DNA of 64,000 nt from Serpentinicella alkaliphila (GTDB taxonomy: Bacteria > Bacillota > Clostridia > Peptostreptococcales > Natronincolaceae): the NCBI RefSeq assembly GCF_018141405.1, contig NZ_CP058648.1:2816502-2880501 (forward strand). The letters are read 5' to 3'. The notes beneath the pieces are model-generated. The model did no database searches. It had not been told where the DNA came from and saw only the letters and a list, made by a program, of their open reading frames with translations. Positions 25,910 through 49,926 of the stretch are shown in pieces. How positions within the stretch are numbered: the first letter of the stretch is position 1; each line of letters starts with the position of its first letter. A program made the position numbers and the translations under genes.

Positions 25910-26260
25910 CGAGTAAGTCTATAAGCCGAGTTCTGTCATAGATGATCATCTATCTAGGCCTACTGTTACCAATAGGCTCAAGCAATCTACCACGGGACAC
26001 GACGGGCCGCCGCTTTTTAGTCCCTACTTGATCTTGCTCCAGATGGGGTTTACATAGCCAACTAGTCACCTAGTTGCTGGTAAGCTCTTACCTCACCTTT
26101 CCACCCTTACCCCTTCTAATTATATGGAAGGGGCGGTATCTCTCTGTTGCACTTTCCTTGGAGTCACCTCCACTGGGTATTACCCAGCACCCTGCCCTTT
26201 GGAGCTCGGACTTTCCTCGTTCACAGCTTATGCTATGCCCGCGATCATCCAACTTACTCG
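25910..26260 (-). ncRNA. rnpB: RNase P RNA, copy 1 (type A)
   Basis: About 351 nt. The ends CGAGTAAG/CTTACTCG pair as P1. Universal segments are readable on the minus strand: GAGGAAAGTCCGAGCTC (CR-I), GTGCAACAGAGAG, GGTAAGGGTGGAAAGG, GTAAACCCCATCTGGAGCAAGA, GCTTGAGCC and CAGAACTCGGCTTA (CR-V). P16/P17 with a GGCCC loop mark it as type A. The P12-like helix is short (CCCCTTC/GAAGGGG). This is the catalytic RNA that trims tRNA 5' ends. A second full copy lies 23.6 kb away in the same orientation. Confidence 0.96.
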
Positions 26261-26292
26261 TTTAGATATTAAATTGTTTTACCAAGATAATT

Positions 26293-26321
26293 ATTATATC
26301 ATAAAAATTATTTATTGTATA
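26293..26321 (-). promoter_or_regulatory. Candidate promoter of rnpB copy 1
   Basis: On the minus strand TATACA-N17-TATAAT ends about 32 bp before the RNA 5' end. Similarity to the flank of copy 2 extends to about 26310, so the promoter region was duplicated too. Confidence 0.5.
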
Positions 26322-26488
26322 ATTGTATTTTTTGGTACATTAATTATTACTTTTCAGTACGCTTTAAGTTTTACCTTATTCCTAATAGCAACATATTTTT
26401 ACAATCGTTTTTTTAAGAAACGTCATTTACCTAATGTAACATTATACTAAAAAAATCCTTTAATCTGTTGTGGTATAAAATAAAGAAG

Positions 26489-27493
26489 TTACATGCTTTT
26501 TATTTCTTCCCATATGGAATCTATTACGGGAATCCCCTTCTCTAAATTTTCTCTTCTAGTAGATATTACTCTTTCTCCAGGATAAGATATTTTAACTCCT
26601 TCATTAGCAGGTTGTGATGCTTTTATATCATCTATAACATTGTTTATCATAATATCTGTAATCTCCGGTGTATTAAATTTACCAGGATCTATAGCTATCA
26701 TAACCTGTGAACAACCAAATTCATCTTCAGTCATTCGACCTATATCAGTTGTAGAATTTCCTCCTGATAATATCGTTGCAACTAAGTCAAGAGCTATGGA
26801 TAAACCCGACCCTTTCCAAAATCCTATTGGTAGTACCCTCGATGTTTTTTCTATTTCTGCTGGGTCAGTTGAAATATTTCCAGTTGAATCATAGCCCCCC
26901 GGAAAAGGTAATTGTATACCCTTTATTTTATATTCATTAATTTTTCCATAAGAAAATTGTGACATGGCTCCATCAAAAACAACATGCTCTCCATTACTTC
27001 TTGGTATAGATATAACAAATGGATTATTTCCAATTTTACTATCCTTTGCACCCCATGCTGGCATATTAGGCATAGTATTAGTCCAGCATATTCCTACACA
27101 TCCAGCATCAGCAGCTTGCCAACCATAAGCACCACCCCTCAACCAATGATTTGTGTTTCTTATAGCAACTACACCTACGCCATATTCCTTTGCTAATTCT
27201 ATTGCCTTATCCATGCAAATTTTAGCATTAATATTTCCAATGCCTAAATTTCCATCCCATCTCTCAAAACACCCATCTCCACCTATTTTTTTAGCTTTTG
27301 CATTAATATCAATGTAGCCTTTTTCGATGTAATCAATGACTCTTGAAAATCTATTAACTCCATGAGAGTAAACTCCATCTAAACTATTTTCAGCAAATAA
27401 TTTAGCAGAAACCTGGGCATCCTCTTCCCTCATGCCTTTTTTAACCAAAACTCTTTTAAATTCCTTAAGCATATCATCAAATTTGATTCTCAT
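26489..27493 (-). CDS. yiaK: Ldh-family oxidoreductase, YiaK-like (2,3-diketo-L-gulonate reductase type)
   Basis: 334 aa. It matches the YiaK subgroup of the malate/L-lactate dehydrogenase-like family, with landmarks GVYSHGVNRFSRVIDYI, NHWLRGGAYGWQAA, WGAKDSKIGNNP and LPIGFWKGSGLSIALD. These NAD(P)H enzymes reduce 2-oxo acids such as 2,3-diketogulonate. In this cluster the substrate is presumably a uronate-derived keto acid. It is the most downstream gene of the minus-strand uxa block and is separated from uxaC by the IS110 element. Confidence 0.82.
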   Translation of the reverse strand: MRIKFDDMLKEFKRVLVKKGMREEDAQVSAKLFAENSLDGVYSHGVNRFSRVIDYIEKGYIDINAKAKKIGGDGCFERWDGNLGIGNINAKICMDKAIELAKEYGVGVVAIRNTNHWLRGGAYGWQAADAGCVGICWTNTMPNMPAWGAKDSKIGNNPFVISIPRSNGEHVVFDGAMSQFSYGKINEYKIKGIQLPFPGGYDSTGNISTDPAEIEKTSRVLPIGFWKGSGLSIALDLVATILSGGNSTTDIGRMTEDEFGCSQVMIAIDPGKFNTPEITDIMINNVIDDIKASQPANEGVKISYPGERVISTRRENLEKGIPVIDSIWEEIKSM

Positions 27494-27559
27494 AATAACT
27501 TACATTCCTTTCGCTTCGCTCAGGCACAAATCGTAATGAAAGTGTCTAGCGAATCAGAT

Positions 27560-27804
27560 TTTTGTCTATACTTAATGTGAAAATATATAGATATACTACA
27601 GAGCACGGAGGGGGGAGTAGAATTGATTCCTCCACTTTAGGATTCAAGTCCGTATAATAACATGTGTCGAGTATCTTCTCAAGCACAAATGAGTGTGCCT
27701 ATGAGCACGTAACCTAATAATTGTATAAGCAATTCCTTGGTATTCTTTGCTGGATACTCAGTCAATTTCTATATATTTTCAATTTTTATTTTGGAGGGTT
27801 GCTA
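27560..27804 (+). ncRNA. Candidate IS110 bridge RNA region
   Basis: IS110-group elements encode a structured bridge RNA in the non-coding left end, and this region is in the right place and of the right length. Hairpins are visible: ACGGA...TCCGT (about 27603-27655) enclosing a GGAG...CTCC stem, and a CAC...GTG structure near 27684-27706. Loop-target pairings cannot be assigned here. Position-based inference. Confidence 0.4.
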
Positions 27805-29067
27805 ATGTCGAAGATTGTCCACCCTATTTGTTGTGGCATTGACGTTCATAAAAAGTTTCTTGTAGCTGCAATAGCTATAACTGATAAGCAAAATGTCACT
27901 ACATATATCAAACGTCGTTTTTCTACTTTCAATTCTGACCTCAAAAATCTTGAAAAATGGCTACATAATCATAACTGCACTGAAGTCTGTATGGAATCCA
28001 CCGGTAAGTATTGGATTCCTATTTTTAATGTGCTAGAGAATTCTTGTCATGTTGTTATTGCTAATCCTAAATATGTTCGTGCTATTAAAGGCAAGAAAAC
28101 CGATGACAAAGATGCCACTTGGATTGCTGACTTATTTAAATTCGGTTTAGTTCCTTCTAGCTTTATTCCTCCCAAAGAAATTCGTAGGCTTAGGGAGCTT
28201 TTTCGCTATCGCTTTAAATTAACTGGACATAGAGCAAGTGAAAAAAACAGACTACAAAATGCTCTTACTGTATCCAACATCGCTCTAGCTTCTGTTGTTA
28301 GTGACTCTTTTGGCAAATCTGCTTCTGCAATTGTGGACTATATTCTATCCTGTGATACCTTTGATCCTGAGCACTGTAAGTCTCTTTTGCAGAAAAAGTT
28401 AAAGGAAAAGGCCGATGAGATTATACAGTCAATTATCGGATATGAGCTTAGTAATGATCAATCAGTTAAAATGAAGGTTTGCACAAAGCATTATGATTAC
28501 ATTAACGAATGTGTTGATGATTTAGATAAAACTATTTCATCTATGGCAGAACCTTACACTGATTTCATTAATTATGCTGTCACTATCCCAGGTATTAGCA
28601 AAAATTCAGCAACTTATATTATTGCAGAAATCGACACTGATATGTCTGTTTTTAAGTCTTCCAAGCATTTATGCTCTTGGGCAGGTTTAACTCCCCAGAA
28701 TAACGAAAGTGCTGGCAAGAAAAAATCAGTACGCATATCAAGAGCTGGAGTTTATCTCAAACCCCTTCTTGTTCAATGTGCAAATGCTGCGATAAAAGAT
28801 AAAAAGAATCCCTATTTTAAAATTAAGTATGACCATATAAAGAAACGTCGTGGTCATAAACGAGCTATCATTGCCATTGCACGTATGATTCTTACTTGCA
28901 TCTACCACATGTTTTTGAATAAAGAAGCTTTTAATCCATCAGATACAAATTACTCTGATATTCCAGAAGGCCTATATAAAAAACTTAAGATGCAGTTTAT
29001 TAAAAATGCTATTAAATTATTAGAAAAAGAAGGCTGTGTAATTACCCCTCCAGCTGCATCGGCCTGA
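27805..29067 (+). CDS. IS110-family transposase (DEDD recombinase)
   Basis: 420 aa from the ATG at 27805 (GGAGGG site); the longer reading back to 27721 is not needed. The N-terminal RuvC-like domain has GIDVHKK (Asp), CMESTGKYW (Glu) and KTDDKDA (Asp, Asp). The C-terminal Tnp_2 domain has TIPGISKNSATYI and the SAGKKK...RISRAG segment with the catalytic serine region. It appears intact, so the element may still be active. Confidence 0.93.
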   Translation: MSKIVHPICCGIDVHKKFLVAAIAITDKQNVTTYIKRRFSTFNSDLKNLEKWLHNHNCTEVCMESTGKYWIPIFNVLENSCHVVIANPKYVRAIKGKKTDDKDATWIADLFKFGLVPSSFIPPKEIRRLRELFRYRFKLTGHRASEKNRLQNALTVSNIALASVVSDSFGKSASAIVDYILSCDTFDPEHCKSLLQKKLKEKADEIIQSIIGYELSNDQSVKMKVCTKHYDYINECVDDLDKTISSMAEPYTDFINYAVTIPGISKNSATYIIAEIDTDMSVFKSSKHLCSWAGLTPQNNESAGKKKSVRISRAGVYLKPLLVQCANAAIKDKKNPYFKIKYDHIKKRRGHKRAIIAIARMILTCIYHMFLNKEAFNPSDTNYSDIPEGLYKKLKMQFIKNAIKLLEKEGCVITPPAASA

Positions 29068-29198: not shown

Positions 29199-30605
29199 TT
29201 ATACCTCAATTCCTAAGTAATCCAATGCATTACCATAACATATATCCTGAACAATTTTCCCTAGTATTTTCAGGTCATATGGATATTCACCTTCTTCTAC
29301 CCAAGTACCAATTAAATTACATAATATTCTTCTAAAGTATTCATGCCTTGGATACGAGATAAAACTCCTAGAATCTGTAACCATACCTACAAATCTACTT
29401 AATAATCCATTGTTTGCTAGGGAAATCATCTGCTTTGTCATACCATCCTTTTGGTCTAGAAACCACCAACCTGAGCCAAATTGCATCTTTCCTGGAATTC
29501 CACCACCTTGGAAAGAGGCCATCAAAGTAACCAATACGTCATTATCCTTAGGGCTTAGATTGTATAGAATGGTTTTAGGCAAATCGTATTTGTAATCTAT
29601 TTCATTTAATAGTTTTGCTAATGGTTCCGCTATATTATCATCTGCAATGGAATCATATCCCGTATCCGGACCAAGCTTATTAAACATGTTGCTATTCACA
29701 TTTCTCATAGCACCTATATGTAACTGCATAGTCCATCCCCTTGTGCTATACATTTTGGCTAATTCAATCAGTGTTCTAGTTTTGTATTTATTTATTTCAG
29801 CTATTGTTAATTCTTCTCCCTTTAATGCCTTCTTAAAAATACTGTTAATCTCTTCATCCCTTGCTTGTTCAAAGGTTACTTTGTCTATACCATGGTCTGA
29901 AATTCTGCATCCTTCTTCATGAAAAAATTGAACTCTACTTTCTAAAGCCTTTAGAAAATCTTCATAAGATTCAATTTTAATGTTACTTATATTGGATAAA
30001 GACTGTACCCATGGCACAAAAGTATCATTTTGAATATTTATACCTTTATCTGGTCTTAAAGTGGGTAGTACATTAACATCAAATTCCCTATCTTCCCGAA
30101 TTCTTCTATGATGCTCTAGTGTATCAATAGGATCATCTGTAGTACATAGGGCCTTTACATTTGAATTTATAATTAAATTTTTCGCAGAAAAATCATCAGA
30201 TTTTATCAATTCATTCGCCTTATTCCATATCTCTTCAGCAGTAGCTTCACTTATTATAGTATCTATATTGAAAAACCTTCTTAATTCTAGATGAGACCAG
30301 TGATATAGAGGGTTTCCGATGCAGTATGGAACTGTTTTAGCCCATAGCTTAAATTTTTCATATTCATCACCACTGCCTGTTATTAACTCTTCTTCCACAC
30401 CATTTGCACGTAATGCTCTCCATTTATAGTGGTCTCCCCCTAACCATAATTCAGTTATATTTCTGAATTTTTTATTGTCAGCTATTTCCTTGGGGCTTAA
30501 ATGACAGTGAAAATCAAATATAGGCATTTTCTTAGCATAATTATGATACAGCTCAATAGCTACATCATTACTAAGTAAAAAATTTTCATCCATAAACTTT
30601 TTCAT
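29199..30605 (-). CDS. uxaC: Uronate isomerase (glucuronate/galacturonate isomerase)
   Basis: 468 aa from the ATG at 30605 (AAAGGAATG upstream). Metal-binding HxH in IFDFHCHLSP (His33, His35) and the late FVGMVTDSRSF motif are typical of UxaC. It converts D-glucuronate to fructuronate and D-galacturonate to tagaturonate, the entry step of the pathway. It is downstream of uxaA by 95 bp on the same strand. Confidence 0.94.
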   Translation of the reverse strand: MKKFMDENFLLSNDVAIELYHNYAKKMPIFDFHCHLSPKEIADNKKFRNITELWLGGDHYKWRALRANGVEEELITGSGDEYEKFKLWAKTVPYCIGNPLYHWSHLELRRFFNIDTIISEATAEEIWNKANELIKSDDFSAKNLIINSNVKALCTTDDPIDTLEHHRRIREDREFDVNVLPTLRPDKGINIQNDTFVPWVQSLSNISNIKIESYEDFLKALESRVQFFHEEGCRISDHGIDKVTFEQARDEEINSIFKKALKGEELTIAEINKYKTRTLIELAKMYSTRGWTMQLHIGAMRNVNSNMFNKLGPDTGYDSIADDNIAEPLAKLLNEIDYKYDLPKTILYNLSPKDNDVLVTLMASFQGGGIPGKMQFGSGWWFLDQKDGMTKQMISLANNGLLSRFVGMVTDSRSFISYPRHEYFRRILCNLIGTWVEEGEYPYDLKILGKIVQDICYGNALDYLGIEV

Positions 30606-30699
30606 CTTAGACTCATTCCTTTCGTTGTGCTCAAACACACATAATTTTTCAGAAATTAATCTTTAATTCATCCCCTAACTAGTTACACAAAATATTTTT

Positions 30700-32190
30700 T
30701 TAAAGTGTAACTCCTGTTTTATAAATTGCGATTTCCTTAATTCCGTTTTTCTCGTTATTTACATATTCTCCACTCGCAACTTTTATTAGATACTCTATGA
30801 AATTGTTTAACAATGTCTCCATCGGTATATCCTCTAATAATACCCCAGCATTAAAGTCTATCCAGTGGGGCTTTAACTTAAAGATTTCAGAATTAGATGA
30901 AACTTTTACAGTGGGAACAAAGCTTCCAAAAGGTGTTCCTCTTCCTGTAGTAAATAATACTATATGACATCCAGATGCCCCGAGTGCTGTAGATGCAACC
31001 AAATCATTACCAGGGGCATTTAATAGATTTAGTCCCTTCTTTTTAACTATTTCTCCATATCTTAGTACATCCACAACCTTGGACTCTCCACCCTTTTGAG
31101 TGCAACCGAGGGATTTATCCTCTAAGGTTGAAATCCCCCCCTCTTTGTTTCCTGGGGATGGGTTTTCATAGATTGGCTGACCATGTTGAATGAAATATTG
31201 CTTAAAATCATTTATTAAATTAACTATATTATCAAAAACCGATTCAGATTCTGCTCTATCCATTAATATAGTCTCTGCACCAAACATTTCAGGTACTTCA
31301 GTTAATATCGTTGTACCGCCATGATTAATTAGGTAGTCGGAAAAAGCTCCTAAAAGTGGATTAGCAGTTATACCAGAAAATCCATCGGATCCCCCACATT
31401 TTAATCCAACTTTCAGTTCAGATATGGGCATATTTTCCCTAGAATCTTCATTTATAACTTCTAAAATTTCTTTGAGGATATTGACACCTTTTTCAATTTC
31501 ATTACCAACAGCCTGTGTTTTCAAAAACTTAATTCTTTCCTTGTCATATTCACCCAATTCAACGATAAAATCCTCAATAGTATTGTTCTCACAGCCCAAT
31601 CCCAAGACCAATACTCCACCAGCATTAGGATGTTTAACTAAATCCAAAAGTATTGTTCTAGTATTTTCAAAGTCATCTCCTAACTGTGAACACCCATAGT
31701 TATGCTTATATACATGAATTCCATCAATTTGTCCTAGATCGTTCTCTGCTTTCAATCTATTTGCTATTATCTCTGCAGTACCATTAACACATCCAACAGT
31801 TGGCACTATCCAGAGCTCATTTCTAATACCTACATCACCATTTTTTCGTTTATAACCGTTAAATTCAGGGGTTTTACCGATCCTCTTAACCTCCATATTA
31901 ATTGGATTATACTTATAATCTAATGTACCATCTAAATTCGTTTTGATATTGTGAGTGTGTATCCATCGTCCTTTTTCTATGTTCTTTACCGCATGCCCAA
32001 TTGGATATCCATATTTGATAATATTTTCTCCTTGATAAATGTCTACTGTAGCTATTTTATGACCGGGTTTTATATTTTCTAATAATTCAATTTCTTTTCC
32101 ACTGTCAATTAAAACTGTACCTTGCTTTAACTCTTTTAAGGCTATTAAGGTATTATCTTTCTCATTAATTCTTATATAATCCTTCATCAT
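30700..32190 (-). CDS. uxaA: Altronate dehydratase (UxaA family)
   Basis: 496 aa: N-terminal SAF domain (about 1-90) and large C-terminal GD_AH domain with conserved cysteines (CSQLGDD, GLGCENN, KCGGSDGFSG, LGCTQKGG) for an iron centre. It dehydrates D-altronate to 2-keto-3-deoxygluconate. The start overlaps the uxaB stop by 4 bp (ATGA), so translation is coupled. Confidence 0.93.
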   Translation of the reverse strand: MMKDYIRINEKDNTLIALKELKQGTVLIDSGKEIELLENIKPGHKIATVDIYQGENIIKYGYPIGHAVKNIEKGRWIHTHNIKTNLDGTLDYKYNPINMEVKRIGKTPEFNGYKRKNGDVGIRNELWIVPTVGCVNGTAEIIANRLKAENDLGQIDGIHVYKHNYGCSQLGDDFENTRTILLDLVKHPNAGGVLVLGLGCENNTIEDFIVELGEYDKERIKFLKTQAVGNEIEKGVNILKEILEVINEDSRENMPISELKVGLKCGGSDGFSGITANPLLGAFSDYLINHGGTTILTEVPEMFGAETILMDRAESESVFDNIVNLINDFKQYFIQHGQPIYENPSPGNKEGGISTLEDKSLGCTQKGGESKVVDVLRYGEIVKKKGLNLLNAPGNDLVASTALGASGCHIVLFTTGRGTPFGSFVPTVKVSSNSEIFKLKPHWIDFNAGVLLEDIPMETLLNNFIEYLIKVASGEYVNNEKNGIKEIAIYKTGVTL

Positions 32191-33635
32191 AAAATCTCCC
32201 TTATAGCTTCTTCAATTCCTTTTTTCTCTATATTTATTAAGTATCTGCTTACCAAGACTTTTAAGCCATCTATCTTATTTAAGTCCATTTTCCATAATTC
32301 CTCTAAGCCTAAAACAATTTCTACCATATATTTATAGTATTCATCTGTACCATCACAGTTCTCCCAAAGCTTTGAGAACATTTGAAGATAATCAGGAGAG
32401 TCAGATAGATTTATTTTTTCTCCGTTTCTCTCACCTTTATAGAAACGTATCAAAGCTGCTAAGGAGAATAGTAGCTTTCGTGGTAATTCCCCTTTTCGCT
32501 TATTGTATTCTAGAATAGATGGTAATACCCTAGTCTCAAACTTACTCATAGAATTTAATGATATACTTATCAAAAAGTGCTTAATATAAGGGTTTCTAAA
32601 TCTATCTATTACTGCTGCTGCAAATTCATTAAGTTCATCCTGTGGCAAATCTAAGGTAGGAACTATTTCATCATACAATGCAGACCTAATATATCCTCCA
32701 ATTACTTCGTCATTTATAGAATCTTTTACAGTATCAATATTATATAAATATGAAACTGGTACCATAATAGTATGTAATCCGTTCAAAATCCTTACCTTTC
32801 TCGTCCTATATAAAGTCAAATCATCTACAAACAATACATTTAAACCAATTTTATGAGCGGGGAATTCCTTCGCTAGTTCTTTAGGCCCCTCTATTACCCA
32901 TAGATGAAAATACTCACCCTCCACTAAAAATTTATCACGATATCCAAGCTCTTTCTCAATTTCATCAGCAGTTTCCGTTGGGTAACCTGGAACTATTCTA
33001 TCAACCAAAGTATTATAAAATACATTTGCATTGTTAATCCAGTCAATAAATCCTGACTCTAATTTCCACTGCTGTGATAGCTTAATTATAATATCCTTAA
33101 GTTTTTCTCCGTTTTTATCTATTAACTCACATGGCAGAATAATTAAACCCTTTGATAAATCTCCATTAAATGACTTATACCTATGATATAAAAAAGCTGT
33201 TAATTTACCGGGAAATGAATTTTGGGGTCTATCCTCTAATTTATCTTTATTATCATAAACAATTCCAGCCTCAGTTGTGTTAGATATAATAAATCTCATT
33301 TCGGGAGATTCAGCAGCTTTTAAATACTCATCATAATCCCTATATGTATTGATTGCTCTCGTTATAGAATTTATTATAGTACTCTCATTGATTAATTTAC
33401 GGTTTTCAATACCTTTTATTAAGAGTGTATACAACCCACTCTGGTCATTAAGTTCATATACTTTATCATTATTCAAAGGTCCCACTACTAATACTCCAGT
33501 ATTAAAATCTAGCTCCTTATTCATTTTATCAACTATCCAATCAACAAAAGCCCTTAGGAAGTTACCTTCACCAAATTGTAATATCCTTTCAGGATACTCT
33601 AAATAATCTTTATAAATGGATTTATTTAGTTGCAC
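32187..33635 (-). CDS. uxaB: Tagaturonate reductase (altronate oxidoreductase)
   Basis: About 482 aa. I prefer the GTG at 33635 over the GTG at 33647, because the latter lies inside the AGGAGGTG ribosome site. N-terminal nucleotide fold with RILQFGEGNFLRAFVDW, then the mannitol-dehydrogenase-like C-terminal domain with ILNGLHT. It reduces tagaturonate to altronate with NADH. First gene of the uxaB-uxaA-uxaC minus-strand series, directly downstream of the IclR regulator gene. Confidence 0.92.
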   Translation of the reverse strand: MQLNKSIYKDYLEYPERILQFGEGNFLRAFVDWIVDKMNKELDFNTGVLVVGPLNNDKVYELNDQSGLYTLLIKGIENRKLINESTIINSITRAINTYRDYDEYLKAAESPEMRFIISNTTEAGIVYDNKDKLEDRPQNSFPGKLTAFLYHRYKSFNGDLSKGLIILPCELIDKNGEKLKDIIIKLSQQWKLESGFIDWINNANVFYNTLVDRIVPGYPTETADEIEKELGYRDKFLVEGEYFHLWVIEGPKELAKEFPAHKIGLNVLFVDDLTLYRTRKVRILNGLHTIMVPVSYLYNIDTVKDSINDEVIGGYIRSALYDEIVPTLDLPQDELNEFAAAVIDRFRNPYIKHFLISISLNSMSKFETRVLPSILEYNKRKGELPRKLLFSLAALIRFYKGERNGEKINLSDSPDYLQMFSKLWENCDGTDEYYKYMVEIVLGLEELWKMDLNKIDGLKVLVSRYLINIEKKGIEEAIREIL

Positions 33636-33704
33636 TTCACCGAACACCTCCTCTTTTATAAATGAATTGTTTATATCTTCTGTTGCTAATCATACCTTAA
33701 GGAA

Positions 33705-34466
33705 TTATGGTCTATATCCCAATTCCGTCGAGATAAGGTGGGCATACTTTTTTATCTCTAGGGCAAAAACTTCGACCCTGTCCTTCGTGACTCTTATAGA
33801 TGGGCCTGAAATACTAATTGCTCCTTCAACATCACCATTACTATTAAAGATTGCAGCACCAATACACCTAACGCCTATCTCGTTCTCTTCATCATCCTCA
33901 GCAAATCCCTTTTCTCGAATTCTTTGAAGTTCTTCCTTTAGCTTTTCTAACTCTGTGATAGTATTACTAGTCAGTTTTTCAATTTTCGTATTTTCCCAAA
34001 TGGTTTCTACCTCCTCGTCAGTCATATATGCAAGCATTGCTTTTCCGACTGAAGTACAATATAGAGAACTCCTTCTGCCTATAGTAGAAGCCATACGGAT
34101 AGTATTGTCCGCCTCTACCTTATCAATATAAACTATGTCATTTGTATCCCGTATTACTAAATGAACAACTTCATTTACGGACTCCATTAAAGCCTTAGTA
34201 AACGGCTTAGATACTGCTAATATATCTGCTTCAGCTATCCTTCTAGCCCCTAGCTCAAATAATTTAAATGATATTCTATATTTATTGCTATCTGAGTCTT
34301 GTACTACAAACCCTTTATATATTAGTGTTCCTAACAATCTATGAACCGTGCTTTTGTGTAGATTTACTCTACTACCTATCTCTGCAACCCCAAGTCCATC
34401 TACGTGCTTAGAAAGTAATTCCAAAATTGTAAGTGCCCTATCTACCGACTGAACAACATCTTTCAC
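33705..34466 (-). CDS. kdgR: IclR-family transcriptional regulator (KdgR-like)
   Basis: 253 aa with a GTG start 8 bp after AGGAGG. N-terminal winged helix (LGVAEIGSRVNLHKSTVHRLL) and C-terminal IclR effector domain with GVRCIGAAIF. It is divergent from eda-kdgK and co-directional with uxaBAC, so it most likely controls both units in response to 2-keto-3-deoxygluconate. A 17-bp palindrome in the divergent region is a candidate operator. Confidence 0.87.
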   Translation of the reverse strand: MKDVVQSVDRALTILELLSKHVDGLGVAEIGSRVNLHKSTVHRLLGTLIYKGFVVQDSDSNKYRISFKLFELGARRIAEADILAVSKPFTKALMESVNEVVHLVIRDTNDIVYIDKVEADNTIRMASTIGRRSSLYCTSVGKAMLAYMTDEEVETIWENTKIEKLTSNTITELEKLKEELQRIREKGFAEDDEENEIGVRCIGAAIFNSNGDVEGAISISGPSIRVTKDRVEVFALEIKKYAHLISTELGYRP

Positions 34467-34612
34467 TTAAACTTCCTCCTAATCTATTCTTAAAAAATAG
34501 TAATAATTATTATATAAATTATAACTAATAAAAAATGTATTTAGAATAATATTGCATTTATTTTCCATATTAATTATAATATAAATTAAGAAGTTTCGCA
34601 ATGTAAATATAG

Positions 34613-34629
34613 GTTTCATAATACGAAAC
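34613..34629. promoter_or_regulatory. Candidate KdgR operator
   Basis: GTTTCATAATACGAAAC is a near-perfect palindrome (one mismatch per arm) between kdgR and eda, 26 bp before the eda start. Placement fits autoregulation and eda-kdgK control. Confidence 0.5.
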
Positions 34630-34654
34630 AGCTATGTGAGGGAGGCTTTATAAA

Positions 34655-35281: not shown

Positions 35282-35300
35282 TTATTTGGGAGGAATAAAA

Positions 35301-36829: not shown

Positions 36830-36846
36830 TTTGTTTTTTAAGTGAT

Positions 36847-38043: not shown

Positions 38044-38090
38044 ATCTTTTAATTCTCCTATCTTGAACATGGGTGTCTAACTATGCAACC

Positions 38091-38432: not shown

Positions 38433-38505
38433 AGTTGTTACTCCTCCCAAAATAGTATGATACTTAACAAGGTTTTTTAAGCTAAGTACTAAAAACTATA
38501 ACAAA

Positions 38506-38560: not shown

Positions 38561-38568
38561 TATTAGCT

Positions 38569-40182: not shown

Positions 40183-40326
40183 TTTAATCCACCACTTTCT
40201 TTAGGTTTATACGCATAATAACTAAATTAATTATAAATATTAATATAGCCCTAACTTAAGCGAAAAGAATAATACATGATGTCTTTCTCAGAACTTTACT
40301 AAAAATACAAATACCAATCCTCTATA

Positions 40327-41397: not shown

Positions 41398-41494
41398 TTT
41401 CGTATACCCCTCTCTATATTCAGAATAATATGCTAGCAATGGTAGCTCAACAATTGCTCTATATTATCAAACACATCTTTTTATAATAACTTAA

Positions 41495-41965
41495 TCATTT
41501 CTGTATTTTAGAAATTACATAGCTATAAAAGTCTTCTTTTTGTTTTCCTAACACTCTATTATTTAGTATAAAACCATGCTTATTGGTTGAAAATATCAGA
41601 ATCATACCCGGTTTTTTTGATATTCCTATTACGGTATTCCATGCTAAATCTGAACTTTGTTTTTCAGTTTTTATATGAATTCCATCATCATCAAATCCTA
41701 TTTCCATAACATCTGAAATCCTTGCTATCTGTCTTTTAGCTCTAAAATAAACAACTAAAGGTTGAATAACCGTAAATAAACAAATTCCGATTATTAGCAA
41801 TATTCTCAAGAGGTTATTTACATGTCCCCAAAATTTTACTGTCAACGATACCATCATCGCAGTAAATATAATGTTACATACCCCAACTATTGAGCTATAC
41901 ATACTATACATAGATAGTTGCCATATATCAAAAGCAGTCGTTTTATAATTAAATTTATATTTCAT
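41495..41965 (-). CDS. YcxB-like membrane protein
   Basis: 156 aa from the ATG at 41965 (AGGTGA). Two helices at about 22-45 and 55-80, then a PH-like YcxB domain (IGFDDDGIHIKTEKQSSDLAW...). It follows dctM directly. The family has no known function; linkage to the transporter may be incidental. Confidence 0.72.
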   Translation of the reverse strand: MKYKFNYKTTAFDIWQLSMYSMYSSIVGVCNIIFTAMMVSLTVKFWGHVNNLLRILLIIGICLFTVIQPLVVYFRAKRQIARISDVMEIGFDDDGIHIKTEKQSSDLAWNTVIGISKKPGMILIFSTNKHGFILNNRVLGKQKEDFYSYVISKIQK

Positions 41966-41973
41966 ATCACATA

Positions 41974-43266
41974 TCACCTAAATAAAGATGGCAGCCACAA
42001 ACTAATACTAGGAATAAAAGTAATCAATAGGAGAGTAATAATCATACAGACATAAAACGGTAATGTAGCTTTTACAACCCGTTCCATTGGTACATTCCCG
42101 ACTGCAGAACCGATAAATAATACTGCACCAACAGGTGGAGTCAAAAGACCTATACCACAGTTTAAAACAATCATAATCCCGAACTGAATAGGATTTATGC
42201 CTATCGAAGTAGCAATCGGCAGTAAGATTGGGGTAGCAATAAGGATGATAGGCGCCATATCCATAATACAACCAAGAACTAAAAGAATAATGTTTATAAG
42301 CAGCGCTAAAATAATTGGATTATCCGTTAACCCTATAATTGCATTTGATGCTAGTCTAGGGACACTTAATCGTGTTAGAAGAAATCCAAAAATACTAGAA
42401 GTTGAGATTAGAATGAGTACGATAGAAAGAGTATTTACACAGGACTCAAGCGACTTCCAAACACCCTTCCAATCTAGACCTTTATAAATATATACACTAA
42501 CAAACAAACTGTAAATAACCGCAATAGCTGCGGACTCTGTGGCTGTAAAAACACCACCAACTACACCTACTACAACGATGAGAACCGCCGCAAGAGCCCA
42601 GAAAGAAAGAAAAAGCTCCTTTAACAAAATCATCATACTGAATTTCTCTCCCCTAGGATAATTTCTCTTTACAGAAATTATATAGGACCCTACCATTAAC
42701 GACACAGCCAAAATTGCTGCTGGTATGTAACCTGCAAGAAAAAGTCCGCCAACTGAAACTCCACCTGCAACAGTTGCATATATTATCATATTATGACTAG
42801 GCGGGACTAAAAGTCCTTCGACAGATGAAGTGATAGTAACTGCCGTAGAAAAATCGTCATCGTAACCTTGTTCTACCATCATAGGTATTAAAATACTACC
42901 AAGAGATGCTGTATCTGCAGAAGCAGAACCAGAGATGCCCCCGAAGAAATATGAAGCAACGATGTTAACCATCGCCATACCCCCACGCATCCATCCAACA
43001 CAGGCTCTGGCGAGAGCAATCAGCTTTTCAGAAATTCCTCCTGATCCCATAAGAACCCCCATTGTAATAAAAAAAGGTACTGCCATAAGGCTAAATTGAC
43101 TAATGCCCTTTACCATTTGCTGTGCAATGGTAGTAAGAGGAAGTCCCTGATACAAAAGAGTGAATACAGCTGATAAAGCTACTGCATAAACAATAGGAAA
43201 TCGTAAGAATATCATGATGAAAAAACTACCCAGTAAAATTAGTATTGCAATAGTCTCAGCACTCAT
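41974..43266 (-). CDS. dctM: TRAP transporter large permease
   Basis: 430 aa from the ATG at 43266 (GGAGGAGG), overlapping dctQ by 11 bp. About 12 helices, with the TRAP-M words GSASADTASLGSILIPMM and NCGIGLLTPPVGAVLFIGSAVG. It forms the sodium-driven permease together with DctQ. In this cluster it likely imports hexuronates. Confidence 0.93.
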   Translation of the reverse strand: MSAETIAILILLGSFFIMIFLRFPIVYAVALSAVFTLLYQGLPLTTIAQQMVKGISQFSLMAVPFFITMGVLMGSGGISEKLIALARACVGWMRGGMAMVNIVASYFFGGISGSASADTASLGSILIPMMVEQGYDDDFSTAVTITSSVEGLLVPPSHNMIIYATVAGGVSVGGLFLAGYIPAAILAVSLMVGSYIISVKRNYPRGEKFSMMILLKELFLSFWALAAVLIVVVGVVGGVFTATESAAIAVIYSLFVSVYIYKGLDWKGVWKSLESCVNTLSIVLILISTSSIFGFLLTRLSVPRLASNAIIGLTDNPIILALLINIILLVLGCIMDMAPIILIATPILLPIATSIGINPIQFGIMIVLNCGIGLLTPPVGAVLFIGSAVGNVPMERVVKATLPFYVCMIITLLLITFIPSISLWLPSLFR

Positions 43267-43789
43267 TGTATACCTCCTCCTTAACAAAAATCGATTTAAT
43301 ATGATTATATATGGACTCAACTAAAAAAATCACCATAGCTACACCTGCCAGAGGTACTGGTAAATACATCCAAAATCTAGAAATGCTTGGCATACTTACA
43401 TAAGTCCCTCTTGAACCAAGTAATACTGCATATCTCCAACCTACTACTATCATAACTACTGCAAGACCTAGTACAGCAACATCTGAAAGGATATCCAAAG
43501 CCAATATCAATTTTTTTGGCAAATATTTATCAAATGCAGTCATACGAATATGTGCCTTTCTTCTAATGGCTAAAGCCGCTGAAAGAACTGCCATATATGC
43601 CATACAAGTTAAAACCACTTCTTCACTCCATGCAGGATCTGGAATAAAAGAAATGTATCGTCCAGCTACTGCCATAGTAGTAATAAGAATATCAACTATT
43701 AATAGCAACTTGCATAATAATAGGACTATCTTGTAAGCCATATCGTAAGCCGGTTTTATTTTGTCTATTGTATTAAAAATGTTTGACAT
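43256..43789 (-). CDS. dctQ: TRAP transporter small permease
   Basis: 177 aa, four helices, with the DctQ words PDPAWSEEVVLTCMAYMAVLSAA and RRKAHIRM. Good ribosome site (GGGGGAG). It bridges the binding protein and DctM. It overlaps dctM. Confidence 0.9.
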   Translation of the reverse strand: MSNIFNTIDKIKPAYDMAYKIVLLLCKLLLIVDILITTMAVAGRYISFIPDPAWSEEVVLTCMAYMAVLSAALAIRRKAHIRMTAFDKYLPKKLILALDILSDVAVLGLAVVMIVVGWRYAVLLGSRGTYVSMPSISRFWMYLPVPLAGVAMVIFLVESIYNHIKSIFVKEEVYNEC

Positions 43790-43840
43790 ACATTAGCTCC
43801 CCCTATATAAAATTTCTCATTAAATGTTCAGTCATTATTT

Positions 43841-43882
43841 TTAAAAAAGACACAAAGATCATAATTAACCTCTGTGTCTTTT
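43841..43882 (-). terminator. Hairpin between dctP and dctQM
   Basis: AAAAGACACA/TGTGTCTTTT stem followed on the minus strand by T6. A partial terminator here would make more binding protein than permease. Confidence 0.75.
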
Positions 43883-43938
43883 AAAGTTATCATAACAATA
43901 CTATTATTAATATGTTGCGAGCCGGTCTTAGACAAACA

Positions 43939-44970
43939 TTATTGCATATCAATGATTTTTTGATAAAGTTCTTTGCTATTTGCTGTCGCATTAACAACAA
44001 CATCTTTAACTGCTTCCTGCCAAGGTGTTTTATCCTCAACCTCTATTACATTAACACCTGCTGCTCTTAACTCTGCTAATACCTTATTCTCAGCTTCTTC
44101 AGAAATTCTTCTGTTAAATTCTGATGCATATCTACCAGCTTCCATAAGAGCCTCTTGTTGTTCTTCTGTCAATTTGTCCCAAGCCTCATCCGTGATAACT
44201 ACTTGTATCGCCCCAAGTGTATGTCCATCAAGAATTAAGTTTGGTGCTACTTCGTGGAATGAATTTGCCTTATAGTTAGCAATAGGCTGCTCAGCTCCGT
44301 TTACAACACCTGTTTGAAGTGCAGAATAAAGTTCGCCGAAAGATACAACTGTAGGTGAAGCGCCTAAGCCTTGTACCATACCTTGCATAACAGGGTCATT
44401 TGATACTCTTAATTTCATACCTTTTAAGTCTTCCATACCACTAATTGGTTCAACTGTGAAGAAATGGCGGAAACCTTCTTCTCCGTAGAACAGACCTCTA
44501 ATGCCTGTACCTTTTTGATGTGGCTCAAGAAGGAATTCAGGAGCTAATTCAGATGTAGCAAAATTCCAGAAGTGCTCACGGCTTACAAATGTGAAAGGAA
44601 CAGAAAGTAATTTAGACTTCTCTCCACCGTAGCTCGTAAGTGCAAAGGCAGAAATACGAGACATATCAATTGTCCCACCGCCACCAAGCATTGCATCTAG
44701 AACATCATTCTCCGATCCTAAAACGCCACTTGCCTGAATGTCAATCTTAATCTTACCGCCTGATAGTTCCTCAACTTTTTCTTTAAACACAAGAGCAGTT
44801 TGACCAACAATACTTTCTAGCGGATTAACTTCTGCATATACAAAAGTAATCTCTTTTGGCTCTTCTTTAACCGTTGTTTGCGTTGGTGTTTTCGCCCCAC
44901 ACCCCGCTAATACTGAAACAATTAACACTAGCACAAGACTTAATGATAGTAATTTGAACCCCTTTTTCAT
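43939..44970 (-). CDS. dctP: TRAP transporter substrate-binding lipoprotein (DctP family)
   Basis: 343 aa from the ATG at 44970 (GGAGGGG). Signal with lipobox VLAGC, Thr-rich linker, then the DctP fold with GMEDLKGMKLRV (the Arg that binds the substrate carboxylate) and VNGAEQPIANY. The anchored protein delivers a carboxylated substrate, here probably galacturonate or glucuronate, to DctQM. Confidence 0.92.
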   Translation of the reverse strand: MKKGFKLLSLSLVLVLIVSVLAGCGAKTPTQTTVKEEPKEITFVYAEVNPLESIVGQTALVFKEKVEELSGGKIKIDIQASGVLGSENDVLDAMLGGGGTIDMSRISAFALTSYGGEKSKLLSVPFTFVSREHFWNFATSELAPEFLLEPHQKGTGIRGLFYGEEGFRHFFTVEPISGMEDLKGMKLRVSNDPVMQGMVQGLGASPTVVSFGELYSALQTGVVNGAEQPIANYKANSFHEVAPNLILDGHTLGAIQVVITDEAWDKLTEEQQEALMEAGRYASEFNRRISEEAENKVLAELRAAGVNVIEVEDKTPWQEAVKDVVVNATANSKELYQKIIDMQ

Positions 44971-45217
44971 ACTGTCCCCTCCAATATCTTTACTTAATAT
45001 TTGCATTGTAGAAAGTTCCATATAAGCCGTTTCATTAAAACTGCAAACCGCGTCTAAGAAATTTCTACATTAATGCCGTTAATTTTTCCTTACATAAGAT
45101 ATCGTTTTCTTTAAAAACTAGAATGCCCGCTATTCCATTCTTCATAGTTCATAACATTATTAAGGTAGTATGTAGTTTAGTGGTATATGGAAGATTAGGT
45201 AAAAACAAATCATATTA

Positions 45218-45937
45218 TCAAATAAAATTTAAAAGATTATTTTTCTTGTGCTCCATATTAAAGTATTCAGGATATTTTTGTTTTAACTCCTCCTGCTCAA
45301 ATATCAGCTTTTGAATATGATTATATATAACTTCCTGTCCCATTTGCTCATTGTGAGTTTTTATACTCTCTAAAATCTGTAAATGTTGATCAATAACATT
45401 CTTCCAGTTCACATCTGCAATAAATGTAAGCATCCGAGTACGCTTGTATTCCGTATTAATTTGTTGTATAAAAGACCATGTTCTTTCTTTGTTGCATCCT
45501 ATAAAAATAGTTTTATGAAACTCCTCGTCCATCTCTAAAAATTCAAAGAACTGTCGCTTGTCTATTAACTTTCTTTGTTCATTAATATTCTCTTGAAGTA
45601 CATTTAATAACTCCTCTGGAAACTTTTCTGTGGCTATCTTAAGTACAGCCAATTCTAAGCATTCTCTAATAAATCTTGCATTCTCAACAACATCTAAATC
45701 AATATAAGAAATATAAGTTCCTCTTTGTGGAAGTATATAGAGTAAACCTTCCTTAGATAATTTAATGAACGCTTCTCTTACGGGTGTTCTACTAACCTTT
45801 AAAAGGTCGGAAATCTCCTTTTCGCTTACTCGAGTCCCTGGAGGCATATTAAGATTAATAATGTTTCTCTTAATAACCTCATAAACATAATCACCGACTG
45901 TCATTCCACTTCTTTGTTTTTCTACTTCTAAATTCAT
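45218..45937 (-). CDS. GntR-family regulator, FCD subgroup (first)
   Basis: 239 aa. N-terminal GntR winged helix (SEKEISDLLKVSRTPVREAFIKL) and C-terminal all-helical FCD domain with its metal-binding His residues (EFHKTIF). It is next to dctP and so likely senses a uronate and controls the transporter. Short direct/inverted repeats GGTAGTATG occur both in its own promoter region and before dctP (about 45161-45190). Confidence 0.85.
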   Translation of the reverse strand: MNLEVEKQRSGMTVGDYVYEVIKRNIINLNMPPGTRVSEKEISDLLKVSRTPVREAFIKLSKEGLLYILPQRGTYISYIDLDVVENARFIRECLELAVLKIATEKFPEELLNVLQENINEQRKLIDKRQFFEFLEMDEEFHKTIFIGCNKERTWSFIQQINTEYKRTRMLTFIADVNWKNVIDQHLQILESIKTHNEQMGQEVIYNHIQKLIFEQEELKQKYPEYFNMEHKKNNLLNFI

Positions 45938-45989
45938 ACGATCACTTCCTCGGTAGAGTATCTATCCATTATTTGCTATATACTACCAT

Positions 45990-46018
45990 ACTACCGTACC
46001 ATCTATCAGTTGTCAACC
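45990..46018 (-). promoter_or_regulatory. Promoter of the first GntR gene, with repeats
   Basis: On the minus strand TTGACA-N17-TAGTAT. Repeats GGTA(C/G)GGTAGTATGGTAG overlap the -10 and are a plausible autoregulatory operator. Confidence 0.55.
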
Positions 46019-46159
46019 AAAATATGGAACATAATAAATGCATATATATTTTTTTCTGCCTGTAATATTCGAATGAAAGCAGTTAATAGGCTATCCAAGA
46101 GTAATAGTTATCAGCTATCAGACAACTTTATTGTTAAGGGAAACTAAAAGTCTTGTACT

Positions 46160-46864
46160 TTAAATATCACTTTCTTGATCATGTATAAAATAGTCTGTAA
46201 ACTCTGTATAAATTCGCTCACCTAATCTTTCAATCCCGCCATTCAGATGTTTACTAACAAATTCTTCTATGCGATTAATTTCTTTATTTTTTATAATATC
46301 TGCTAATTCCTTGTGTTCCTCATAAATAGCTTGAAAGCTATGTTCCGCAACAATATCAAGCATTCTAAACCTTGTGTAATGCACCTGTAGCTTTTGAATT
46401 TGATCCCAAACTATTAGTTTATTTGTGGCTTTAAACCATACCTTATGAAGTTCACCATCTATCTTATAAAAATCCTCTGCAGTAAAGTCTGATTTCAATA
46501 GAGTCTCTTGAAGCCTTAGATTATACTCAATTCCAGCTACTAATTGATCATCAAGATTTTTTATTGCATCTCTAATAACCATGGTTTCAATTGCTTTTCT
46601 CATATATATGAACTGACGTATTCTATCCATATCTAACAAAGAAACATAATTTGCCTTATATGGTATATTGACTACTAATCCAGAATTATTAAGTCTTTGA
46701 AGGACATCTCTACTTGGGGTCCTGGATATATTATATCTTTCGCATATGTCTTGTTCAGTTAATAATTGTCCTGGTTTAATTGTTAAATTAAGTATATCTT
46801 TTTCAAGACTACTATACACATCTTCAGCTATTGTATTCGCCTTATAAGCTCTTATTCTTGCCAT
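46160..46864 (-). CDS. GntR-family regulator, FCD subgroup (second)
   Basis: 234 aa with N-terminal winged helix (TEQDICERYNISRTPSRDVLQRL) and C-terminal FCD domain (DGELHKVWF). It lies 54 bp after kduI on the same strand, so it may be part of a kduD-kduI-gntR operon and regulate it. AAGGAG site. Confidence 0.85.
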   Translation of the reverse strand: MARIRAYKANTIAEDVYSSLEKDILNLTIKPGQLLTEQDICERYNISRTPSRDVLQRLNNSGLVVNIPYKANYVSLLDMDRIRQFIYMRKAIETMVIRDAIKNLDDQLVAGIEYNLRLQETLLKSDFTAEDFYKIDGELHKVWFKATNKLIVWDQIQKLQVHYTRFRMLDIVAEHSFQAIYEEHKELADIIKNKEINRIEEFVSKHLNGGIERLGERIYTEFTDYFIHDQESDI

Positions 46865-46918
46865 ATCTAAAACTCCTTACATAATAGAATGATTTATAGT
46901 ATATTTTGGTTTATCTTA

Positions 46919-47755
46919 TTATTTCAATTCTTTTATTGCAATATGGTCCATATCGGTAAACTCAATATTTTCACCGCACATACCCCATATAAATGTATAA
47001 TTACTAGTTCCGACACCACTATGAATGGACCAACTTGGGGATATAACCGCTTGTTCATTTGCCACAACGATATGCCTTATTTCTTGAGGTTGCCCCATTA
47101 AATGGAAAACTCTAGCCTCATTGTTCATATTAAAATACATATATACTTCCATACGTCTTTCATGAGTATGGGGTGGCATCGTGTTCCATACATTTCCTGG
47201 TTCAAAAATTGTCATACCCATTACCAACTGACAGCTTTCACAAATGTTTGGATGTATGTATTGGTTAATTGTTCTAACATTTAGATTTTCTTTTTCACCT
47301 AGTTTTACTTTTCTTGATTGTCCCAAAGTAATTATTCTTGTAGGGTAGGCTTTGTGAGCAGGACTACTATTGAAATAAAATTTTGCAGGGCTATTAATGT
47401 TATCTGATTCAAAGATAACATCTTTACTTCCCATTCCAATATAAAGCCCATCTGCATTGTCTAAAATAAACTCATTGCCGTCTATTGTTATCTTTCCTTT
47501 GCCACCAATATTTATGATGCCTGCTTCTCTTCTTTCAAAGAAATAACTAACTCCTAGTTCCTTACCAGCGCTTAGTTTGATTTTTTCACCAACAGGCATA
47601 ACACCCCCTGCAATTATTCTGTCAATATGTGAATAAACTAAAGCTGCCTCATTTTCAACAAATAGCTTTTCTATTAAATAATGGTTTCTTAACTCTTCCG
47701 TTGTATAATACTTAGAATCACTTGGATGATTTGCATATCTTATCTCTAAATTCAT
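46919..47755 (-). CDS. kduI: 5-keto-4-deoxyuronate isomerase
   Basis: 278 aa, the standard KduI length. Bicupin fold with metal ligands in MPPHTHERRMEVYMYF (His, His, Glu) and a later His (SIHSGVG). It isomerises 5-keto-4-deoxyuronate (DKI) to 2,5-diketo-3-deoxygluconate, the route for unsaturated uronates released by lyases. Paired with kduD. Confidence 0.95.
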   Translation of the reverse strand: MNLEIRYANHPSDSKYYTTEELRNHYLIEKLFVENEAALVYSHIDRIIAGGVMPVGEKIKLSAGKELGVSYFFERREAGIINIGGKGKITIDGNEFILDNADGLYIGMGSKDVIFESDNINSPAKFYFNSSPAHKAYPTRIITLGQSRKVKLGEKENLNVRTINQYIHPNICESCQLVMGMTIFEPGNVWNTMPPHTHERRMEVYMYFNMNNEARVFHLMGQPQEIRHIVVANEQAVISPSWSIHSGVGTSNYTFIWGMCGENIEFTDMDHIAIKELK

Positions 47756-47777
47756 TAAACATCACTCCTTCTTAAAT

Positions 47778-48533
47778 TTACCTTGCAAGCCAGCCGCCAT
47801 CAACGGCAAGTGTAAATCCATTAACATAGTCCGATGCTTTAGATGCTAAAAAAATCACTGCACCATCCAAGTCCTCAGGAGTCCCCCATCTATTAGATGG
47901 TATTCTTGATAAAATTTCTGAACTCCTTTTTTCATCAGCTCTAAGAGCAGCTGTATTATCTGTAGCCATATATCCAGGGGCTATTGCATTTATATTAATA
48001 TTGTATTTAGCCCACTCATTTGCCATTAACATAGTTATCCCTTTAACACCAGATTTACTGCCCGTATATGAAGGAACTCTTATCCCCCCCTGAAAAGATA
48101 GCATAGATGCAATGTTTATTATCTTTCCTGAAGTACCCTGCTCGATAAACTTTTTAGCTACTGCTTGACTTAAAAAAAATACCATTTTAAGGTTGATATT
48201 CATAACTTCATCCCAATCTTGTTCTGTGAAATTAATGGAATCTTCACGCCTAATAATTCCAGCATTGTTGACTAAAATATCAATTTTACCAAAGTTGTGC
48301 ATGGCTGCTTCCATAACTTTTGGAATAGAACCTATTTCCATTAGGTTAGCTTGAACACCTACAAATTTTCTTCCTACTTTTTCTACAAGCTCTTTTGTTT
48401 CCTTTAAATCAGTGGATCCTACTCCCAGAATATCTGCTCCAGCTTTAGCTAGGGCTATAGCCATACCTTGGCCAAGACCTGTTCTGCAGCCTGTAACCAT
48501 TGCTACCTTACCTTCTAATGAAAAGATATCCAT
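47778..48533 (-). CDS. kduD: 2-keto-3-deoxygluconate 5-dehydrogenase (SDR family)
   Basis: 251 aa. SDR motifs: VTGCRTGLGQGMA cofactor loop, NNAGI, the catalytic Ser (ASMLSF), YTGSKSG (YxxxK) and the C-terminal VDGGWLAR. It reduces 2,5-diketo-3-deoxygluconate to KDG, which enters kdgK. First gene of the kduD-kduI(-gntR) series. Confidence 0.94.
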   Translation of the reverse strand: MDIFSLEGKVAMVTGCRTGLGQGMAIALAKAGADILGVGSTDLKETKELVEKVGRKFVGVQANLMEIGSIPKVMEAAMHNFGKIDILVNNAGIIRREDSINFTEQDWDEVMNINLKMVFFLSQAVAKKFIEQGTSGKIINIASMLSFQGGIRVPSYTGSKSGVKGITMLMANEWAKYNININAIAPGYMATDNTAALRADEKRSSEILSRIPSNRWGTPEDLDGAVIFLASKASDYVNGFTLAVDGGWLAR

Positions 48534-48571
48534 CCTTACGCCCCCTTGTAAATTTGTATGTTCTCCCTATT

Positions 48572-48602
48572 ATTGTATACATTGTATACAAAGTATACAA
48601 TA
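48572..48602. promoter_or_regulatory. Triple GTATAC operator upstream of kduD
   Basis: Three GTATAC cores at 48575, 48584 and 48593, spaced exactly 9 bp, form overlapping palindromes (TTGTATACA and TTGTATACAA types). The core fits FadR/FCD-type GntR sites (T-GT-AC-A). It lies 39-69 bp before the kduD start, in the promoter zone. Confidence 0.6.
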
Positions 48603-48677
48603 ATTATAAAATATATCCCATATGTACGTCAATAGGAGTATAACATACTCATAAATATAGATTTATATAGTTTCTTT

Positions 48678-48787
48678 AAGTGGCTGTATCTCTCTTGTTA
48701 TACTTCCCTTGTAGTCACCTCCTCTAGATTACCCCACACAAAAATGATGTTTAGAAATTATGTTCCGCGTTTTATACCAACTTGTAT
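48678..48787 (-). pseudogene. Decayed rnpB relic (5' half only)
   Basis: 48678-48740 aligns with rnpB copy 2 around 49796-49860 at roughly 80% by eye (AAGTGGC.GTATCTCTCT, GTAGTC.CCTCC, ATTACCC). A second patch (CCGCG...CCAACTT near 48764-48784) matches the extreme 5' end, with about 25 bp missing between. The conserved AGTCCG region is gone, so it cannot be functional. It is a third, older copy. Confidence 0.6.
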
Positions 48788-48859: not shown

Positions 48860-49009
48860 TAGTTTGACATCAAACTATTTTTAAACTAAAATAGTTTTAT
48901 ATAAAACTATTATAAGATTCTCAAAATAATAACTAACTATCTTTTTAATTATCTTTTATATTATAAATATTAATATATTTTTTTAATAAAATAGTTTGAT
49001 ATCAAACTA
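48860..49009 (+). promoter_or_regulatory. Operator-embedded promoter (right locus)
   Basis: TAGTTTGACATCAAACTA (48860-48877, identical to the left locus) and TAGTTTTATATAAAACTA (48892-48909) start 32 bp apart. TTGACA in the first and TAAAAT before the second are 17 bp apart. A third, perfect palindrome TAGTTTGATATCAAACTA is at 48992-49009. Downstream only a 9-codon ORF (49052) remains, so the peptide genes of the left locus seem lost here. Confidence 0.7.
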
Positions 49010-49134
49010 TTTTATTAAAAAAAATCATTTACTCATACTATATAAGGTACAATGAAAAACCTGATAGTAATAATGTATTAGTTTTATAACATTAACTAAA
49101 TATGTTTTGTTTTATTTCGCATATCTCTCTTTTA

Positions 49135-49184
49135 CTTTGGCAGTAGATATTGTAAGATAGGTCTATTGCCAAAGACTTTTTTTA
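49135..49184 (+). terminator. Terminator of the right operator locus
   Basis: CTTTGGCAGTAGA/TCTATTGCCAAAG stem (one G-T) then a T run. It shares the TTGGYAGTAG arm with the hairpin at 25684. Confidence 0.8.
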
Positions 49185-49494
49185 ATAAACTACATTTAAA
49201 GTAATCTTATATTTATTTTCTTATCCTTTTTCTTATATAAGAATTATCTATTCATACATTTATAAATATATACAAATTTAAAAACATTTTGACCTAATAT
49301 ACCTTCCTTTCCCCCGAAATACCCAAATTTACAGACTACAACTAAATTAACCAAAACCAATCTTAATTATCTCCTAGTATTATCAAAGATATAAATGATA
49401 TCAATTCGCCTTTTAAACAGCTGATATTTTAATAAAGAGACTTTTAGTAGTTTAGAAATCAACTCCCTTTGGTGGTAAGCAGCCAGTTAGAGGC
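49185..49494. other. AT-rich spacer, nothing recognised
   Basis: About 310 bp without a plausible ORF, palindrome of the local type, or RNA motif that I can identify. Confidence 0.5.
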
Positions 49495-49540
49495 CTCAAA
49501 AAATAAAAAAGATTGTAAATATATCTATATATTCACAACC
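49495..49540 (-). terminator. Terminator of rnpB copy 2
   Basis: GGTTGT...ACAATC stem with AATATAT/ATATATT inner pairs and T-rich tail on the minus strand, 18 bp past the RNA 3' end. Confidence 0.8.
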
Positions 49541-49557
49541 TTTGTATAATCATATAA

Positions 49558-49926
49558 CGAGTAAGTCTATAAGCCGAGTTCTGTCATAGATGATCATCTA
49601 TCTAGGCCTACTGTTGCCAGCAGGCTCAAGCGATCTACCACGAGACACGACGGGCCGCCGCTTTTTAGTCCCTACTTGATCTTGCTCCAGATGGGGTTTA
49701 CATAGCCAACTAGTCACCTAGTTGCTGGTGAGCTCTTACCTCACCTTTCCACCCTTACCCCTTAAATATATTAACTATTTCTAGCTATATATTAAAGTGG
49801 CGGTATCTCTCTGTTGCACTTTCCTTGGAGTCGCCTCCACTGGGTATTACCCAGCACCCTGCCCTTTGGAGCTCGGACTTTCCTCGTTCACAGCTTGGCT
49901 GTGCCCGCGATCATCCAACTTACTCG
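49558..49926 (-). ncRNA. rnpB: RNase P RNA, copy 2 (type A, long P12-like helix)
   Basis: About 369 nt with all the universal segments listed for copy 1 intact. It differs at about eight core positions, in the P3 tip, and in the P12-like arm, which is replaced by a longer AU-rich stem capped by GAAA (TAGCTA-GAAA-TAGTTA). All core changes are structure-neutral: GUAA to GCAA and GUGA to GCGA tetraloops, or U-G/C-G exchanges in stems. Same orientation as copy 1. Confidence 0.96.

What the first reader, a model, noticed from the sequence alone, without database searches (positions are those of the whole stretch)
25910..49926. A 22-kb uronate catabolic cluster is bracketed by two full rnpB genes in direct orientation
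RNase P RNA is normally single copy. Here two complete copies (25910-26260 and 49558-49926) lie 23.6 kb apart in the same direction, and everything between them is the hexuronate cluster plus an IS110. Similarity also extends into the promoter flank of each. This looks like an island integrated by recombination at rnpB, with the incoming DNA carrying its own variant rnpB. The direct repeats could also allow excision. No integrase is visible, so homologous recombination rather than site-specific integration is my guess.
Basis: partly seen in the sequence, partly recalled or inferred. Interest (0 to 1): 0.92.

Follow-up and report, generated by a model that had tools for sequence, protein, structure and literature searches.

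The report
Duplicated rnpB flanking acquired uronate genes
This bacterium carries two intact, slightly different copies (plus a decayed scrap of a third) of the normally single gene for RNase P RNA, with a block of sugar-acid-eating genes, much of it acquired from other bacteria, lying between them; the copies are siblings made within this lineage, so the spare RNase P gene probably did not arrive with the sugar genes.

Summary
Observation confirmed. Two complete class A RNase P RNA genes (A 25906-26260, B 49554-49926, both minus strand) lie 23.6 kb apart, and the genes between them are a uronate cluster plus one IS110. All 19 family relatives have one rnpB, beside rpoD-trmK-nif3, which is B's position. 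New here: a decayed third rnpB piece (C, 48677-48739), and a paired, lineage-specific convergent transcription unit with a rare operator downstream of both A and B; the repeated unit is promoter + rnpB + that unit. Part of the cluster (36.8-48.65 kb) is horizontally acquired: 80-85% nt identical to a relative whose core DNA is 68% identical, and nearly as close to a genome of another family; the shared stretch stops 30 bp from C. But A and B are sister genes (bootstrap 100; 97% identical outside P12) and neither resembles the rnpB of genomes sharing the cluster, so the idea that the incoming DNA brought a variant rnpB is not supported. Best reading: in-lineage local duplication of the rnpB unit, with acquired uronate genes between the copies; both copies look functional. 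Other genera of the order carry 2-3 dispersed rnpB copies. No integrase lies in the interval.

The parts
25906..26260 (-). rnpB copy A, full-length class A RNase P RNA, short P12 stem
   Evidence: cmscan 307.3 bits, model 1-367
49554..49926 (-). rnpB copy B, full-length class A RNase P RNA, longer P12; in the ancestral position next to the rnhA-like/nif3/trmK/rpoD block
   Evidence: cmscan 304.3 bits; synteny with 19 relatives
48677..48739 (-). rnpB piece C, degenerate remnant matching model positions 71-133, ends at P12
   Evidence: 51/64 identity to A, E 1e-9 in pairwise BLAST; nhmmer E 5.2e-6, no comparable hit in reversed control
26293..26321 (-). putative promoter of copy A (TATACA-17-TATAAT), read by eye
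   Evidence: aligned to the promoter region of B; inference
49962..49990 (-). putative promoter of copy B (TTGACA-17-TAAGAT), read by eye
   Evidence: inference
25041..25800 (+). downstream unit A: palindromic operators (25041, 25081, 25113, 25275), promoter TTGACA-17-TATAAT, two tiny ORFs, hairpin 25686-25725 and terminator; converges on rnpB A
   Evidence: operator search, hairpin and folding; transcription inferred
48860..49190 (+). downstream unit B: operators (48860, 48892, 48992), promoter TTGACA-17-TAAAAT, hairpin/terminator 49139-49180; converges on rnpB B
   Evidence: transcription inferred
36835..48647 (-). horizontally acquired block: MFS, cupin, uxuB-like, uxuA, ycxB, dctM, dctQ, dctP, gntR, gntR, kduI, kduD
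   Evidence: 80-85% nt identity to G018 and 79-85% to G305; pfam
29199..36323 (.). uxaC, uxaA, uxaB-like, iclR (minus) and kdgA, kdgK (plus); 60-70% aa to family relatives
27721..29067 (+). IS110-family transposase, the only close copy in the genome
   Evidence: pfam, genome search
26489..27493 (-). Ldh_2-family dehydrogenase, left end of the cluster
50037..55600 (-). conserved right flank: RNase H-like, nif3, trmK, rpoD, dnaG

Best explanation
A unit made of the rnpB promoter, rnpB and the small convergent transcription unit downstream was duplicated locally within this lineage, leaving B in the ancestral place, A further downstream and a decayed third piece C between them. A composite uronate cluster, a large part of it acquired from other Clostridia, came to lie between the copies; its right end abuts C and its left end abuts A. 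Both intact copies kept a promoter-like sequence, a terminator and the RNase P fold, so both are probably expressed and functional. Recombination between A and B could delete the cluster and leave a single rnpB. Shown: copy number, sisterhood, remnant C, the paired downstream unit, horizontal origin of 36.8-48.65 kb, single-copy relatives without the cluster at this place. Inferred: order of events, how the cluster entered (perhaps recombination at the repeats), expression of both copies.
For: Two full hits and only two in the genome. A+B split SH-aLRT 99.9 / UFBoot 100, four private shared bases. B in the conserved rpoD-trmK-nif3 context; 19 of 19 relatives with a single rnpB there and no uronate genes nearby. 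Piece C, with the end of the acquired block 30 bp away. Operator unit present at six loci in 3.26 Mb, two of them immediately 3' of the two rnpB copies, and absent near rnpB in relatives; hairpin GGYAGTAG..CTAYTGCC found only in those two places among the sequences tested. Acquired block 80-85% nt identical to G018 against 68% for core DNA, and kduI/kduD 89-90% identical to G305 of another family. A/B differences outside P12 fall in loops or mostly keep pairing.
Against: The spacers between rnpB and the operators are otherwise poorly alike, so the age of the duplication is uncertain and gene conversion may have kept A and B similar. No congener is held, so an unsampled close relative could have donated one copy. 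The order of duplication and insertion is not resolved. The region upstream of A's promoter shows no clean junction.
Confidence: 0.6

Rival explanations
1. Single-crossover (Campbell-like) integration: a circle or fragment from a close congener carrying the cluster and its own rnpB recombined with the resident rnpB, giving two rnpB copies around the island.
For: Direct repeats bracket the cluster; cluster horizontally acquired in part; no integrase; long identical runs between copies.
Against: The genomes sharing the acquired block have quite different rnpB (G018 90%, G305 86%) and A/B are sisters; none of the family genomes has the cluster within the roughly 10 kb examined on either side of rnpB; a third piece C needs an extra event.
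Confidence: 0.22
2. Site-specific or element-driven integration at rnpB in more than one round, each leaving an rnpB copy, as with islands in tRNA or tmRNA genes.
For: Three rnpB traces in direct orientation, one truncated.
Against: No integrase in the interval; both copies are full-length and carry diverged promoters and downstream units, unlike a short att duplication.
Confidence: 0.08
3. The IS110 element, of a family that includes RNA-guided recombinases, brought in or rearranged the cluster.
For: IS110 lies inside the left part of the interval.
Against: It has no second close copy in the genome and sits between ldh2 and uxaC rather than at an rnpB border.
Confidence: 0.04
4. Assembly artefact.
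For: RNase P RNA is usually single copy.
Against: Copies differ at 11 bases plus P12 and have different flanks; single-contig 3.26 Mb genome.
Confidence: 0.02

Closest known systems
Bacterial class A RNase P RNA (RF00010)
   Same: Both copies match the whole model and keep the core; scores are within the range of single-copy relatives.
   Different: Two copies in one genome, with different P12 stems.
Dispersed rnpB paralogues in genera g120 and g121 of the same order
   Same: At least six other genomes carry two or three full-length copies, 85-96% identical over the aligned stretches.
   Different: In the two genomes where copies share a contig they are hundreds of kb apart; no uronate genes were found beside them.
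Genomic islands bracketed by direct repeats of RNA genes (tRNA, tmRNA; general knowledge)
   Same: An acquired gene block lies between directly repeated RNA genes.
   Different: Full gene copies with promoters and downstream units instead of a short att repeat; no integrase.
Hexuronate (uxa/uxu/kdu/kdg) catabolic clusters with TRAP transporter
   Same: Same gene content and partly same order as in G018 and G305.
   Different: Located between rnpB copies; the uxaCAB-iclR-kdgAK part is of a different type, 60-70% identical to family members.

Membership tests
Class A RNase P RNA | Full-length match with conserved core and pairing | tested here: met
   both full-length; 95/100 and 93/101 model pairs standard
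Class A RNase P RNA | Expression and catalytic activity | not testable with these tools
   Only promoter-like and terminator-like sequences seen
Horizontally acquired genomic island | Similarity to another lineage far above core genes | tested here: met
   80-85% nt vs 68% core to G018; kduI 89% to another family; holds for 36.8-48.65 kb only
Horizontally acquired genomic island | Absent from this locus in relatives | tested here: met
   19 of 19 family genomes in the stretches examined, shorter at contig ends in three
Integrative element with att sites | Integrase gene and short att repeats at the borders | tested here: not met
   No integrase domain among the 20 proteins of the interval; repeats are whole genes
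Island carrying donor rnpB | One rnpB copy groups with the donor lineage | tested here: not met
   A and B are sisters, bootstrap 100, apart from G018, G010, G305, G308; unsampled congeners not testable

The most novel reading that the evidence does not exclude
Tandem rnpB units act as a recombination platform: duplicated RNase P RNA genes with a regulated convergent unit capture acquired metabolic clusters and allow their loss by recombination, while the two RNase P RNAs with different P12 stems are used under different conditions.
Probability: 0.08. Interest if true: 0.75.

Novelty: new variant of a known kind. Interest (0 to 1): 0.42.

Why it matters
RNase P RNA is treated as single copy and is used as a marker gene. 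Here, and in at least six other genomes of the order, bacteria keep two or three full-length copies, for which the open-access library searched gave no report. If both are expressed, it gives a natural system for asking what a second RNase P RNA does, and whether such repeats help to hold or lose acquired metabolic genes.

Tried and rejected
Donor origin of A or B: rejected for sampled lineages by tree. IS110 as driver: no second close copy, wrong place. Tiny ORFs in unit A as conserved proteins: no significant homologue in the family. rnpB on plasmids and phages: a few nearly full-length hits, several in records of chromosome size; one Enterobacter plasmid shows rnpB beside gar genes and phage-like genes, with no integrase seen next to it; not informative here. 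GC content: interval 32-38% against 28-35% in the flanks, too weak to use alone. Literature on duplicated rnpB or islands at rnpB: nothing relevant found. The first rnpB tree run failed for a thread setting and was repeated.

Full report
Observation. Rfam's class A RNase P model matches two places from end to end on the minus strand, 26260-25906 and 49926-49554, with 307.3 and 304.3 bits. Genome-wide only these two are found; the genome is one contig of 3,257,581 bases. The genes between them encode a hexuronate pathway, a TRAP transporter, regulators and one IS110.

Third piece. A profile of 20 rnpB genes (A, B and 18 family relatives) finds one more hit in the window, 48738-48677, E 5.2e-6, with no comparable hit in the reversed window. 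It matches positions 71-133 and stops at the P12 stem. Pairwise, it is 51/64 identical to copy A.

Repeated unit. Similarity of A and B extends about 60-80 bp upstream, to a promoter-like pair with the same 17-base spacing. Downstream, both copies face a convergent unit with the operator pair TAGTTTGACATCAAACTA-14-TAGTTTTATATAAAACTA around a consensus-like promoter. In the whole genome this operator occurs at six loci; the other four are at pflB-like, etf/glcD-like, thiolase and etf/rex genes (names of these genes read from the sequences, not tested against a library). It is absent near rnpB in relatives. Both units end in a hairpin GGYAGTAG...CTAYTGCC, found nowhere else among the sequences tested. 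The rest of the spacer is poorly conserved.

Relatives. All 19 other genomes of the family have one rnpB, next to rpoD, trmK and nif3, and none of the tested stretches (mostly 20 kb) holds the uronate genes. Copy B is in this position. In several relatives the block found at 2.1-7.3 kb of the window, or part of it, lies within about 9 kb downstream of rnpB, so the stretch between that block and rnpB has grown in this lineage. In the order, 321 genomes searched, at least seven, from three genera, hold two or three strong full-length hits (the match list was cut, so this is a lower bound). In genera g120 and g121 the copies are 85-96% identical over the aligned stretches and dispersed.

Origin of the copies. 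Outside P12 the copies are 323/334 identical; relatives are at most 91%. A and B form a clade with SH-aLRT 99.9 and bootstrap 100, with four bases found in no other sequence. The rnpB of G018 and G305, which share the cluster, are 90% and 86% identical to both. So neither copy comes from those lineages. Differences outside P12 lie in loops or mostly keep base pairs (a few positions at P15 are an alignment shift), so both copies look constrained.

Origin of the cluster. From 36.8 to 48.65 kb the DNA is 80-85% identical to G018 and 79-85% to G305, whereas the rpoD-side core is 68% identical to G018. kduI of G305, a genome of another family, is 89-90% identical to ours, and the kduI tree does not follow families. 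This part is horizontally acquired. The uxaCAB-iclR-kdgAK part is 60-70% identical to family members and gives no sign of recent transfer. Homology to G018 ends at 48647, 30 bases from piece C.

Conclusion. A local duplication of the rnpB unit within the lineage, with an acquired and composite uronate cluster between the copies, explains the findings with the fewest assumptions. Entry by homologous recombination at rnpB is possible but not shown, and the claim that the incoming DNA carried a variant rnpB is not supported by the sampled genomes.

Noticed in passing
25041-25800 and 48860-49190: Convergent units with a rare palindromic operator shared with fermentation genes (pflB-like, etf, thiolase); candidate small RNAs or small ORFs facing rnpB.
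   Followed up: partly
25320-25436 and 25564-25635: Two tiny hydrophobic ORFs with ribosome-binding-site-like sequences in unit A; the longer one has no significant homologue in the family.
   Followed up: partly
19397-19498: Purine riboswitch (86.8 bits) upstream of a phosphoribosyltransferase gene.
   Followed up: no
6087-7343: Cytochrome c552-type nitrite reductase gene; in a few relatives it lies within 9 kb downstream of rnpB, here 18.5 kb beyond copy A.
   Followed up: partly
L097-L111: Multiple dispersed full-length rnpB copies in other genera of the order (g120, g121).
   Followed up: partly
L126 (G018) and L147 (G305): Same uronate block with different internal order and an inserted or lost uxaA-uxaC-uxaB segment, suggesting modular exchange.
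   Followed up: partly
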